Assembly: GCA_948465665.1 (NCBI GenBank) | Contig: CAOJXI010000003.1 | Location: 1 to 33,530, forward strand | DNA from: an uncultured Clostridia bacterium | GTDB taxonomy: Bacteria > Bacillota > Clostridia > Oscillospirales > Ruminococcaceae | DNA length: 33,530 bases | Direction of reading: 5' to 3' | In this document: positions 12,895 to 32,875 of the stretch, in pieces | How the letters are laid out: every line of letters starts with the position of its first letter | Position numbering within the stretch: the stretch's first letter is position 1 | Notes under the pieces: generated by a model | Told to the model about the DNA's origin: nothing | The model's database searches: none | What the model saw: the letters and a program-made list of their open reading frames with translations, nothing else | Translations under genes and position numbers: made by a program

Positions 12895-12951
12895 GGGAAT
12901 CTGTGGAACGAAAGCTTTGTAAAGTACTTTTTTAAAATTTTTTAATTTTTA

Positions 12952-12980
12952 CGTCACACTTTTGGCTCCTTACGTGTCTA
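12952..12980 (+). promoter_or_regulatory. ECF-type promoter motif upstream of the broken gene
   Basis: CGTCACACTTTT followed by CGTGTCTA repeats, with one extra base of spacing, the bipartite motif found on both sides of 30673-30762. From here to the start codon the sequence also aligns well with the upstream region of the secreted peptidase gene at 30593, including the shared ATAGGGAAATTT and a TTCC...GGGAA hairpin. Confidence 0.5.
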
Positions 12981-13059
12981 TATAACTGATAGGGAAATTT
13001 TTCTGGACATTCCCGTATATGCGTAATATGGGAAAAATTATTAAGGAAGGCTTTTCTAA

Positions 13060-13422
13060 ATGAAAAGGCTAAACAGATTCGCAGCAGTTCTTTTGGTACT
13101 CTATAAGTGTGGCTTTGTCAATGACAGCATCTGCATTAGAGGTTGAAACTACAAAACAATTTTCTCTATCAGAGGCATTTTTTGCTCCTGATATTTTTGA
13201 TTACTTAGAACCTGTATTCATAACCGGGGGATGCTGGATGGGCGAGGATTTTTCCAGCCAGACAAGGAGGTTTTCCGCAGCAATCCTGACGGATTGCAAG
13301 GGAAAGCGACGCAGTATGGCTGGAAAAAGACCGCTCAGACAGCGTGGGGCGGTTGTGAATACAGGTTTTTAATTCAAAATGACCAAATTGATGAATTTTA
13401 TCAAGCGCAAGAGGAAATATGA
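13060..13422 (+). pseudogene. Broken secreted-protein gene, paralogue of the C39-like peptidase gene 5' end
   Basis: The ATG follows AAGGAAGG and encodes MKRLNRFAAVLLVL, close to the signal peptide MKKLRKFVAVLLAL of the peptidase gene at 30593. Comparison shows a 2-nt loss in a CTCTCT run near 13099-13102. Skipping it gives SISVALSMTASALEVETTKQ as a signal peptide end and mature start. The frame then runs into the MITE at 13208. Removing the MITE and one TTA copy rejoins the frame to IQNDQIDEFYQAQEEI and a stop at 13420-13422. The mature part does not resemble a peptidase, so it was a short secreted peptide or a truncated remnant. Confidence 0.7.
13208..13368. mobile_element. 161-bp MITE, copy 1 (inside the broken gene)
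   Basis: The terminal inverted repeats are GAACCTGTATTCA / TGAATACAGGTTt, flanked by direct TTA repeats at 13205-13207 and 13369-13371. It is nearly identical over its full 161 bp to 23678-23838. The inner segment CCGCAGCAATCCTGACGG is also present in the element cut by the window end. It carries no transposase; the TNA target and end sequence suggest mobilisation by an IS5-family transposase encoded elsewhere. Confidence 0.85.
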
Positions 13423-13545: not shown

Positions 13546-13649
13546 CTATAGAAATCCTCGAAGTTGTTACCCACAAAATGGACTGAGAGTCCCATAAACG
13601 CAAGGCCCTTCAACCCATTTTGTGGACAATTTTATCGAGGATTGCTATA
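13546..13649. repeat. 104-bp inverted-repeat element
   Basis: The outer arms TATAGAAATCCTCGA and TCGAGGATTGCTATA match at 14 of 15 positions. The inner arms CCACAAAATGG and CCATTTTGTGG match perfectly. The whole can fold into one interrupted hairpin with a ~32-nt loop. No ORF is present. It may be a different small non-autonomous element or a structured transcript, and it lies in the gene-poor stretch 12895-13778, which otherwise holds the broken gene and MITE. Confidence 0.45.
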
Positions 13650-20614: not shown

Positions 20615-20702
20615 ACAAACGAGGAACCTGAAAGACGGTTGCTCCCTCATTAGCAGTTAGAAATAACCGTAGAGTTAGCAGGTCTAGCGGTTATTTCTTT
20701 TT
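20615..20702 (+). ncRNA. Putative antitoxin sRNA, locus A
   Basis: A predicted ~88-nt transcript from a consensus promoter to a hairpin terminator. It begins ATACAAACGAGGAACCTGAA, almost identical to the 5' end of the convergent peptide mRNA, and contains GACGGTTGCTCCC, whose CTCCC is complementary to the GGGAG of the peptide SD. Its 3' terminator hairpin overlaps the end of the peptide gene, so the RNAs share ~40 nt of perfect complementarity. It has no ORF of its own. The role as antitoxin is inferred from architecture. Confidence 0.7.
20661..20702. terminator. Shared terminator hairpin, locus A
   Basis: AAATAACCG (20661-20669) pairs with CGGTTATTT (20688-20696), with CTTTTT on the plus strand. 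The peptide stop codon lies in the stem. The minus-strand side lacks a strong U-run, so mRNA read-through is possible. Confidence 0.75.
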
Positions 20703-20807
20703 GCCGTTATTATGAAAAAAGTTGACGATTGAAATAACAAGATTAATGATACTTACTATTGCAATCGTATACTGAAGTAAAGAACCCCATGTAACAACTT
20801 CTGTCAT
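20691..20807 (-). CDS. 38-aa hydrophobic type I toxin-like peptide, locus A
   Basis: The peptide starts MTEVVTWGSLLQYTIAIVSI and ends with a single hydrophobic helix and the basic tail HNNGKKK. Size, one membrane helix and Lys tail match type I toxins such as BsrG and TxpA, but I cannot assign it to a named family by sequence. GGGAGGGG (20814-20821) lies 6 nt before the ATG. It is encoded at the 3' end of a ~300-nt mRNA whose own promoter is at 20975-21003, convergent with an sRNA that overlaps its 3' end. Locus B encodes an identical peptide; locus C a diverged one with conserved TW, SIINLVI and FHN. Confidence 0.78.
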   Translation of the reverse strand: MTEVVTWGSLLQYTIAIVSIINLVISIVNFFHNNGKKK

Positions 20808-21080: not shown

Positions 21081-21164
21081 ACAAACGAGGAACCTGAAAG
21101 ACGGTTGCTCCCATAGGCTATTAGAAATAACCGTAGGGCTCAAATCTAGCGGTTATTTCTTTTT
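21081..21164 (+). ncRNA. Putative antitoxin sRNA, locus B
   Basis: A predicted ~84-nt RNA. The first ~32 nt (ATACAAACGAGGAACCTGAA, then AGACGGTTGCTCCC) match locus A exactly. The following linker and the terminator loop differ (CATAGGCTATTAG; loop TAGGGCTCAAATCTAG) while the stem is kept. The terminator overlaps the 3' end of the convergent peptide gene. The variable loop could give locus specificity, which is inference. Confidence 0.7.
21125..21164. terminator. Shared terminator hairpin, locus B
   Basis: AAATAACCG (21125-21133) / CGGTTATTT (21150-21158), then CTTTTT on the plus strand. The peptide stop lies in the stem. Confidence 0.75.
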
Positions 21165-21269
21165 GCCGTTATTATGAAAAAAGTTGACGATTGAAATAAC
21201 AAGATTAATGATACTTACTATTGCAATCGTATACTGAAGTAAAGAACCCCATGTAACAACTTCTGTCAT
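21153..21269 (-). CDS. 38-aa hydrophobic type I toxin-like peptide, locus B
   Basis: The coding sequence is identical to locus A, giving the same 38-aa single-helix, KKK-ending peptide. The arrangement is also the same: SD GGGAGGGG (21276-21283), leader hairpin, own promoter at 21439-21467 and a convergent sRNA. The identity of the two coding sequences, against divergence in the linkers and in the -10/spacer of the mRNA promoter, points to recent tandem duplication or gene conversion. Confidence 0.78.
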   Translation of the reverse strand: MTEVVTWGSLLQYTIAIVSIINLVISIVNFFHNNGKKK

Positions 21270-23677: not shown

Positions 23678-23838
23678 GAACCTGTATTCATAACCGGAGG
23701 ATGCTGGATGAGCGAGGATTTTTCCAGCCAGACAAGGAGGTTTTCCGCAGCAATCCTGACGGATTGCAAGGGAAAGCGACGCAGTATGGCGGGAAAAAGA
23801 CCGTTCAGACAGCGTGGAGCGGTTGTGAATACAGGTTC
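23678..23838. mobile_element. 161-bp MITE, copy 2 (intergenic)
   Basis: It has perfect 13-bp terminal inverted repeats (GAACCTGTATTCA / TGAATACAGGTTC) flanked by TTA at 23675-23677 and 23839-23841. It differs from the copy at 13208 at only a handful of positions. It sits between the divergent-side YitT promoter region and the end of the ABC ATPase gene. Confidence 0.88.
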
Positions 23839-29867: not shown

Positions 29868-30593
29868 CTAACAAAGGATAACATTATCGTAGTCTTTAAT
29901 AACATCATACATAAGGCTATTGGCAATCCATTTAACCCCTGCTGTACCAGAACGACCAGGATCAACAATGAAAACCTTATTTGTTCCAGTATTAATCCCA
30001 CTTACATTTAGATAATGTACCGCATCGTAGCCAAAGTCAGAAACATGTCTATAGGTGTCAATCACTGGAATGGGGGGATAGTCCCCTATAATTGCATAAT
30101 AAAATTCATTTAGCATATCATCAATGCTATAAACTCCAACCTGCGCATATCCAGTATGTGACTGCCTGTCATTAAGTACATCCAAGAGAGTTTGAATGTC
30201 AATATATTCTGTCTCGTCGGTAGCACCCATAGCACTAGCAAGGCTGGATGTAGATGGAATTGTCCCATTTATATAGGCTAAGGTTTGCTTTGCAGTAAAT
30301 ACTGCACACCATGTAGGGTGTCCAGTTTGTGCATAATGGGGAACACTGATGGTTACAGTCCGTACCCTCTCTAAAGAAAAGGGGTTACTGCGGTTGCCGC
30401 TTAACTTATCCTTAACCTGTGTAATTTGTTCAGGGGTACCAATACGTTCAATGCTCTCTATTTGTTTTTGTGTTGTAGTTAGAAGGTCAGGAACATCCCT
30501 TTTAACATCCTCTGCTGCAAACGCCGGCATAGAGGAAACCGCGCTCATAGAGAGCGCCAAAAGAACCGCCACGAATTTCCTTAGCTTTTTCAT
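29868..30593 (-). CDS. Secreted C39-like (papain-fold) cysteine peptidase
   Basis: A 241-aa precursor with signal peptide MKKLRKFVAVLLALSMSAVS, cleaved near AFAAED. A ~50-residue linker precedes a C39-type domain: Gln89 and Cys96 in VPHYAQTGHPTWCAVFTAKQ, His193 in YDAVHYLNVSGI and Asp211 in VFIVDPGRSG form the expected oxyanion/catalytic set. It is not fused to an ABC exporter, so it is an extracellular stand-alone enzyme or inhibitor-like relative; the substrate is unknown. GGAGG is 11 nt before the ATG. Its upstream region carries the CGTCAC...TGTCT motif divergent from the ECF sigma operon, and its leader and signal peptide are paralogous to the broken gene at 13060. Confidence 0.8.
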   Translation of the reverse strand: MKKLRKFVAVLLALSMSAVSSMPAFAAEDVKRDVPDLLTTTQKQIESIERIGTPEQITQVKDKLSGNRSNPFSLERVRTVTISVPHYAQTGHPTWCAVFTAKQTLAYINGTIPSTSSLASAMGATDETEYIDIQTLLDVLNDRQSHTGYAQVGVYSIDDMLNEFYYAIIGDYPPIPVIDTYRHVSDFGYDAVHYLNVSGINTGTNKVFIVDPGRSGTAGVKWIANSLMYDVIKDYDNVILC

Positions 30594-30672
30594 AAGAAAA
30601 GCCCTCCTTAATTATTTTATTCCCATACTGCGCACATATAGGAATTCTCAGGAAATTTCCCTATTGCTAAAT

Positions 30673-30701
30673 AAAGACAACTAAGAAGAAAAAACGTGAC
30701 G
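30673..30701 (-). promoter_or_regulatory. ECF-type promoter motif, peptidase side
   Basis: On the minus strand CGTCACG (30701 to 30695), 16 nt and GTCTTTATT. It is identical in spacing to the sigma-side motif; the two -35-like blocks form the inverted repeat AAACGTGACG / CGTCACGTTT (30692-30701, 30734-30743). Confidence 0.6.
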
Positions 30702-30733
30702 AAAAAATTTTGGAAAAAATTTTTTTAAAAAAC

Positions 30734-30762
30734 CGTCACGTTTCGGCTGTTCAGTTGTCTTA
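30734..30762 (+). promoter_or_regulatory. ECF-type promoter motif, sigma operon side
   Basis: CGTCACG (30734-30740), 16 nt and GTCTTAATT, ending about 24 nt before the sigma gene start. It suggests autoregulation of the sigma operon. Confidence 0.6.
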
Positions 30763-30785: not shown

Positions 30786-31346
30786 GTGGGAGAAGTAAAA
30801 GAAAGAAGTCCTTTATTCAATGGCGAGGCACGAAAGAAACTGATTGAAAGGGTATACCGGAGTTCGTTTCAAAAGCTGTGCTGGTTTTCCTATACAATTG
30901 CAGAGGATATGGAAACAGCCGAAGAACTTACAACTGAGGCATTTGTCAGACTAATGGAACATCAGCCGGAACTATACGAAGAAAGTGAAGAGGGTATCAT
31001 TAGATATCTTTGCGCAAGTATCCGAAATATTAGTTTAAATTGGATAAAAGGACAAAAGTTTCGGGAACATCTCTCACTTAATGCTACATTAATGGACGAT
31101 CTTTCCCTTTTCGAAGTGATTGCAGACCCTAACGAGACTCCAGAACAGAAAGTCTCGCGTCAGGAGATGTACAATACGCTGCATAATGCAATTGAACAAC
31201 TGTCCCTAAGACAAAAGAAATGTATAGAGTTTTACATACAGGGACTAGACCATAACGAAATTGCAAAGCGGATGAATATAACCCCTGACGCATCAAGATC
31301 ACTTAGAGCTAGAGCAATTGAAAATCTGCGTTCCATTCTGGGTTGA
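30786..31346 (+). CDS. ECF-type RNA polymerase sigma factor
   Basis: A 186-aa protein with sigma-70 region 2 at about residues 20-90 (ETAEELTTEAFVRLMEH; IIRYLCASIRNISLNWIKGQ) and region 4 at about 130-184 (IEQLSLRQKKCIEFYIQGLD, HNEIAKRMNITPDASRSLRA). It lacks regions 1 and 3, as ECF factors do. The start is GTG with GGAGGTG 8 nt upstream. It is followed after 36 nt by a DUF4367-type membrane protein gene, the usual anti-sigma position. The bipartite motif in its own upstream region suggests self-activation. Confidence 0.92.
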   Translation: MGEVKERSPLFNGEARKKLIERVYRSSFQKLCWFSYTIAEDMETAEELTTEAFVRLMEHQPELYEESEEGIIRYLCASIRNISLNWIKGQKFREHLSLNATLMDDLSLFEVIADPNETPEQKVSRQEMYNTLHNAIEQLSLRQKKCIEFYIQGLDHNEIAKRMNITPDASRSLRARAIENLRSILG

Positions 31347-31382: not shown

Positions 31383-32114
31383 ATGTTTCCCCATGAAGAA
31401 AATAACCATTCTTTTAAATGGACACAGGAAGAAGAGGAGGAAGCGTATAAGGAATTTTTGGAATCTATGAAAACGTTCCCAGAATCTCAGATAACTCAGG
31501 AAAAATTCTTTTCAGAGGAAAAGCTGGAACGCATCCACGAACGGATTTTTGGACAAACCAAGCCTAAACGGTTTCCACGTGCAAAGAAATTTTGGGTAAT
31601 TGTTGCAGCTGCTGCCGCTATTTTAGGTACTATGACGACAGCGGCAGCTTTTCAGAACCGCTTTCGAAGGTTTTTTCTTCATGAATCCAGCATTGCCACG
31701 GATGTAGAAGTCCTGCCGCCGGATGATGGCGAAAACAGCGAAACAATCTCTTATTATTGGGATGCCGAGTATGTACCGGAAGGGTATACCGTTTATTTTT
31801 CGGATATTTCCGATATGGATACTACAATTATGTATACTAATGAGGGGGAAAACCCTATTACAATTTCAACAATCTCTCTTACTGCAATCCCATCCATTGA
31901 TACAGAGGATACACAAAAACAGGATGTGGAAATTGCTGGCGGCTCAGGATATCTATATACCACATCAGATGAGTCCAAAATAAGGCTGCTGCTTTTATAT
32001 GCTGATTGTGTCCTTTTTATCAGCGGGGAAGGGATTTCTCGGGAGGAACTGTTTAAAATGACAGACTCCCTTTATACAACAAATATTACCATAAATCAGG
32101 AGGATTTGCAATGA
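31383..32114 (+). CDS. Membrane-anchored anti-sigma factor with DUF4367-like domain
   Basis: A 243-aa protein. A cytoplasmic acidic N-terminus (TQEEEEEAYKEFLESM) is followed by one membrane helix at about 70-90 (FWVIVAAAAAILGTMTTAAA) and an extracellular domain from about 125 to 240 (YYWDAEYVPEGYTVYFSD, then SGYLYTTSDESKIRLLLLYA) that matches the pattern of DUF4367 proteins. Gene position behind the ECF sigma and this topology support a role in holding the sigma factor until an envelope signal. GGAAGGTGAG precedes the ATG. It overlaps the next gene by four bases. Confidence 0.87.
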   Translation: MFPHEENNHSFKWTQEEEEEAYKEFLESMKTFPESQITQEKFFSEEKLERIHERIFGQTKPKRFPRAKKFWVIVAAAAAILGTMTTAAAFQNRFRRFFLHESSIATDVEVLPPDDGENSETISYYWDAEYVPEGYTVYFSDISDMDTTIMYTNEGENPITISTISLTAIPSIDTEDTQKQDVEIAGGSGYLYTTSDESKIRLLLLYADCVLFISGEGISREELFKMTDSLYTTNITINQEDLQ

Positions 32115-32686: not shown

Positions 32687-32771
32687 AAATGAGGGGCCCG
32701 TAAGACGGCTGCTCCCCCTACTGGTTACAAAGAAATAGCCGTAGAGTTGTCAGTCTGGCGGCTATTTCTTT
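32687..32771 (+). ncRNA. Putative antitoxin sRNA, locus C
   Basis: A predicted ~85-nt RNA starting AACAAATGAGGGGCCCGTAA, with GACGGCTGCTCCCCC. Relative to loci A and B, ACGAGG has become ATGAGG and GGTTGC has become GGCTGC; the same changes occur at the 5' side of the locus C peptide mRNA. It ends in a 13-bp terminator stem overlapping the peptide gene. Confidence 0.7.
32729..32771. terminator. Shared terminator hairpin, locus C
   Basis: AAAGAAATAGCCG (32729-32741) pairs perfectly with CGGCTATTTCTTT (32759-32771). Compared with A and B, a T-A pair in the stem has become C-G (AACCG/CGGTT to AGCCG/CGGCT), a compensatory change that keeps the stem. Confidence 0.75.
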
Positions 32772-32875
32772 GTTATGTTATGGAACAGATTAATCAACGC
32801 GATAACAAGGTTAATGATACTTACTACCGCAGTTATGGACTGAAGCAAAGCGCTCCAAGTAACAACATCTGCCAT
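32762..32875 (-). CDS. 37-aa hydrophobic type I toxin-like peptide, locus C
   Basis: The peptide begins MADVVTWSALLQSITAVVSI and continues with INLVIALINLF and the tail HNITKK. It differs from the A/B peptide at about a third of positions, all conservative within the helix, while VVTW, LLQ, VSIINLVI and FHN are kept: a pattern of selection on protein sequence. GGGAGGGG (32882-32889) precedes the ATG. A longer in-frame reading of 96 aa from 33052 would cover the structured leader and is not credible. Confidence 0.78.
   Translation of the reverse strand: MADVVTWSALLQSITAVVSIINLVIALINLFHNITKK

What the first reader, a model, noticed from the sequence alone, without database searches (positions are those of the whole stretch)
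13060..13422. Gene caught in decay: 2-nt deletion plus MITE insertion with exact TTA duplication
Removing the 161-bp MITE and one TTA restores an open frame across the junction (..IFDYL + IQNDQIDEFYQ..). Separately, comparison with the paralogue shows loss of one dinucleotide in a CTCTCT tract inside the signal peptide. The dinucleotide tract could also be a phase-variable switch, with the MITE arriving later. The reconstructed mature peptide is only about 35 residues, the size of a secreted peptide signal or toxin.
Basis: seen in the sequence. Interest (0 to 1): 0.5.

Follow-up and report, generated by a model that had tools for sequence, protein, structure and literature searches.

The report
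Decayed secreted-protein gene hit by MITE
A small secreted-protein gene in an uncultured Clostridia-type bacterium, still carrying what looks like the promoter of a stress-type sigma factor encoded 18 kb away, has been broken by a reading-frame shift and by a young non-coding jumping element; the breakage is real but is an ordinary kind of genome decay.

Summary
A 161-bp MITE (13208-13368) sits between exact TTA copies (13205-13207, 13369-13371). It is one of about 30 related copies in this draft genome. Of 24 copies checked, 19 have an exact 3-bp duplication of TNA type. The element folds as one hairpin (z -9.7) and occurs in relatives and a viral contig. This copy is young (3 differences from consensus, 1 private). 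The upstream gene (ATG 13060) shares promoter, ribosome site and signal peptide with the C39-like protease gene 29868-30593(-) (alignment score 146, shuffle maximum 32). It lacks 2 nt relative to that paralogue where the paralogue reads CTCTCT.

New here: the shared promoter motif (CGTCAC-16/17-TGTCT) also precedes the ECF sigma gene at 30786. The broken gene is therefore probably a dead member of that regulon.

Not supported: phase variation (only 2-3 CT units) and a peptide signal or toxin. There is no homologue of the first part of the coding region in 398 family genomes, plasmids or phages, no resemblance to the C39 pro-region, and the open frames are weak evidence. The whole gene is absent at this site in three congeners. 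Ordinary decay; interest low.

The parts
12952..12982 (+). Promoter-like motif CGTCAC-N17-TGTCTATA shared with the C39-like gene and (looser) the ECF sigma gene
   Evidence: only two sites of the strict pattern in the draft genome (12952+, 30701-), a third looser one before the sigma gene (30734+)
13043..13050 (+). Ribosome-binding site AAGGAAGG of the broken gene
   Evidence: sequence; aligned with AAGGAGGG of the paralogue
13060..13207 (+). 5' part of the broken gene: start codon, signal-peptide region, first part of mature region; frame shifts near 13100
   Evidence: leader plus promoter alignment score 146 vs shuffle maximum 32
13099..13102 (+). Site of the 2-nt loss (CTCT here, CTCTCT in the paralogue)
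13205..13207 (+). Left target-site copy TTA
13208..13368 (.). 161-bp MITE, terminal repeats GAACCTGTATTCATAACC / GGTTGTGAATACAGGTTT, folds as one hairpin
13369..13371 (+). Right target-site copy TTA
13372..13422 (+). 3' remnant of the frame, 16 codons and TGA
   Evidence: open by chance with probability about 0.21
13547..13649 (.). Second, unrelated MITE-like element (103 bp, ends TATAG..CTATA)
   Evidence: inverted repeat; three further near-full copies in the genome
29868..30593 (-). Paralogue of promoter and leader: predicted secreted C39-like cysteine protease with conserved C96, H193, D211
   Evidence: Pfam PF13529 E 6e-4, below its curated cut-off; alignment
30786..31346 (+). ECF sigma factor, probable regulator
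   Evidence: TIGR02937 73.6 bits, cut-off 42.9; Sigma70_r4_2
31383..32114 (+). DUF4367 protein, probable membrane anti-sigma factor
   Evidence: Pfam PF14285 E 5e-11; the anti-sigma role is inferred from position

Best explanation
A small secreted-protein gene of the local ECF sigma regulon has become a pseudogene. Its promoter, RBS and leader share descent with those of the C39-like protease gene (shown by alignment). A 2-nt loss in the leader shifts the frame, so translation from ATG 13060 would end after 28 codons (shown, if the assembly is right). A young copy of a TNA-targeting hairpin MITE, moved in trans by an unseen transposase (inferred), has also split the mature region; which lesion came first is unknown. 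Transcription by the sigma factor of 30786-31346 is inferred from the shared motif. The product is lost; it was probably a minor secreted protein of an envelope-stress-type regulon (inferred).
For: Promoter and leader homology 146 vs shuffle maximum 32; upstream alone 103 vs 33; leader alone 51 vs 32. Motif before the broken gene, the C39 gene and the sigma gene, with only two strict sites in 2.5 Mb, both in this contig. MITE family with exact TSDs in 19 of 24 copies, all TNA, and this copy 3 differences from consensus. Gene absent at this site in three congeners, where the GH3 and MFS genes are about 130-190 bp apart.
Against: After the 2-nt gap the alignment on its own does not exceed shuffles (24 vs 32), and openness of the frame is weak evidence. 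The genome is a 70%-complete draft in 287 contigs, so the 2-nt loss could be an assembly error. No intact or empty-site allele was found.
Confidence: 0.7

Rival explanations
1. Only promoter and leader were ever duplicated here; the downstream frame is chance, so there was never a second functional gene. The locus is a recombination scrap of the C39 gene into which mobile elements landed.
For: Similarity to the paralogue stops just after the leader; no homologue of the first part of the mature region in what was searched; frame openness not significant; locus missing in congeners.
Against: The frame is open on both sides of the MITE in one register, and after the 2-nt gap the aligned leader keeps its hydrophobic character and an A-x-A-like cleavage region.
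Confidence: 0.2
2. The 2-nt loss is an assembly or sequencing error and only the MITE broke the gene.
For: Draft assembly in 287 contigs, 70% complete.
Against: There is no homopolymer or long repeat at the site of the kind that commonly causes such errors.
Confidence: 0.08
3. The CT tract is a phase-variable switch of a secreted peptide, and the MITE came later.
For: 2-nt difference in a CT tract inside the leader.
Against: 2 against 3 units only; the paralogue is another gene, not another allele; the MITE would break the gene in either phase.
Confidence: 0.02

Closest known systems
Prokaryotic MITEs moved in trans by an IS transposase (reviewed in PMC10969869)
   Same: Short, non-coding, terminal inverted repeats, target duplication, many copies, some insertions inside genes
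   Different: No parent transposase found here; the family was not matched to a named one
IS5-family, IS1031-type elements (TNA target; from memory of ISfinder)
   Same: 3-bp TNA target duplication
   Different: No transposase or shared terminal repeat could be tested
Secreted C39-like peptidases (PF13529)
   Same: The broken gene shares promoter and leader with one of them
   Different: No peptidase domain and no detectable pro-region similarity
ECF sigma / membrane anti-sigma regulons of Firmicutes
   Same: ECF gene, DUF4367 gene downstream, same motif before the sigma gene and two other genes
   Different: Motif and regulation are not tested by experiment

Membership tests
MITE | Short, terminal inverted repeats, no transposase gene | tested here: met
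   161 bp, repeats at both ends, one long hairpin z -9.7
MITE | Target-site duplication | tested here: met
   TTA here; 19 of 24 own-genome copies exact
MITE | Multiple dispersed copies | tested here: met
   15 near-full and about 15 shorter copies; also G001, G002, G032 and viral contigs
MITE | Parent element with the same ends | tested here: inconclusive
   None seen in 100 relatives or viral contigs with exact 18-bp ends
IS5/IS1031-type derived element | 3-bp TNA duplication | tested here: met
   TTA, TAA, TCA in own genome, TGA in G032; that TNA is the IS1031 signature is from memory
IS5/IS1031-type derived element | Transposase of that family with the same ends | not tested
C39-like secreted peptidase | Peptidase domain with catalytic Cys, His, Asp | tested here: not met
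   3' flank does not align with the C39 gene (22 vs shuffles up to 30)
ECF sigma regulon | Promoter shared with the sigma gene itself | tested here: met
ECF sigma regulon | Transcription depends on the sigma factor | not testable with these tools
   needs expression data
Pseudogene | Intact homologue or allele elsewhere | tested here: not met
   no homologue of the first part of the coding region in 398 family genomes, plasmids or phages; only promoter and leader have an intact relative

The most novel reading that the evidence does not exclude
A lineage-specific small secreted protein under an ECF sigma factor was gained and then lost again, so that only a promoter-plus-leader cassette, shared with a protease gene, is recognisable: a case of such cassettes being reused to recruit new genes into a regulon.
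Probability: 0.15. Interest if true: 0.35.

Novelty: new member of a known kind. Interest (0 to 1): 0.2.

Why it matters
It adds a well-defined TNA-targeting hairpin MITE family, spread over two genera of one bacterial family and into viral contigs, and gives a testable three-site promoter motif for an ECF sigma factor. The gene loss itself is ordinary.

Tried and rejected
Peptide homologues by sequence in relatives: hits at E 0.04-0.8; the three read out lie in unrelated open frames. Idea that the mature remnant is the pro-region of a C39-like protein: looked suggestive by eye, but shuffles gave p 0.1-0.98 for each piece. Protease domain further downstream: no alignment. Parent transposase by exact terminal repeats: only elements of 50-270 bp found; the single unpaired end in G002 (L073) lies at the edge of a PtsI-like gene (by eye), with no transposase. 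Orthologue of the sigma factor in congeners: best 36% identity, in G002. Rfam: nothing beyond a tRNA.

Full report
Observation. A 161-bp element at 13208-13368 is bounded by TTA at 13205-13207 and 13369-13371. A search of the genome that holds the window (G000, 2.54 Mb, 287 contigs, 70% complete) found about 15 near-full and about 15 shorter copies. A second full copy lies in the window at 23678-23838. Of 24 distinct own-genome copies with both ends, 19 have an exact 3-bp duplication: TTA, TAA or TCA, so the target is TNA. As a single strand the element folds into one hairpin, -47.4 kcal/mol against a shuffle mean of -18.7, z -9.7. This copy differs from the consensus of 14 full copies at 3 positions, two of them shared with other copies and one private, the outermost base. 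It is therefore a recent arrival. Copies with the same ends occur in two of three congeners and in one other genus of the family. One viral contig holds a full copy between TAA duplications, inside what looks by eye like a phage structural-gene region.

The gene. ATG 13060 has a good ribosome site. A stretch from about 12928 to 13145 aligns with the start of the C39-like gene 29868-30593(-), score 146 against a maximum of 32 in 500 shuffles. The part upstream of the ATG alone scores 103 (maximum 33) and the leader alone 51 (maximum 32). In the leader this copy has CTCT where the other has CTCTCT, so translation from 13060 would end after 28 codons. The part after that gap, on its own, does not exceed shuffles (24 vs 32). 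The frame that follows the gap is open to the MITE and continues after it for 16 codons, but openness of that length is expected by chance with probability about 0.08 and 0.21. The homology of promoter and leader, not the open frame, is the real evidence for a former gene.

What it belonged to. The shared promoter contains CGTCAC, 16-17 nt, TGTCTWTA. This strict pattern occurs only twice in the draft genome, at 12952(+) and 30701(-), and the reversed-pattern control matched nowhere in it. A looser third site, CGTCAC-16-TGTCTTAA, stands before the ECF sigma gene at 30786, which is followed by a DUF4367 gene, probably its anti-sigma factor. ECF sigma factors commonly drive their own operon (general knowledge), so the broken gene most likely belonged to this regulon. 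Two sites of the same pattern in congener G001 stand before a predicted secreted protein and before a hairpin and a toxin-antitoxin-like pair, both named by eye. The clear orthologue of the sigma factor was not found there, so what reads those two sites is open.

History. In G001, G002 and G003 the flanking GH3 and MFS genes are neighbours with only about 130-190 bp between them, so the gene was gained in this lineage or lost in the others. The 3' side also holds a second, unrelated MITE-like element at 13547-13649 with three other near-full copies. The site is thus a small landing zone for mobile elements.

What is not supported. Phase variation: the tract has 2 or 3 units, and the comparison is between two genes, not two alleles. 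A peptide signal or toxin: the first part of the mature region has no homologue in 398 family genomes, plasmids or phages and no family match, and neither piece resembles the C39 pro-region. The present TGA need not be the original end. The pieces on either side of the MITE were searched apart.

Literature. MITE inactivation of genes is well documented in prokaryotes (PMC10969869). The TNA target suggests an IS5/IS1031-type transposase (from memory), but no parent was found.

Verdict. The added value is the link to the ECF sigma regulon and the definition of the MITE family.

Noticed in passing
20691-20807(-), 21153-21269(-), 32765-32875(-): Three short hydrophobic ORFs (M[TA][ED]VVTW..LLQ..), two of them identical and in tandem units 462 bp apart, that resemble holin-like type I toxins of bacteria by eye; no Pfam or NCBIfam match in the ones tested.
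   Followed up: partly
13547-13649: Second MITE-like family, 103 bp, ends TATAG..CTATA, at least three other near-full copies in the genome.
   Followed up: partly
30660-30760: Divergent promoters of the C39-like gene and the ECF sigma gene carry the same CGTCAC..TGTCT motif in opposite directions.
   Followed up: yes
L186:6117-6276: Full-length copy of the MITE with TAA duplication in a viral contig: the element enters phages.
   Followed up: partly
L064:1501-1530 (G001 C215): The promoter motif in a congener precedes a predicted secreted 356-residue protein and lies in three near-repeats of GTGCGCCACATTTTG.
   Followed up: no
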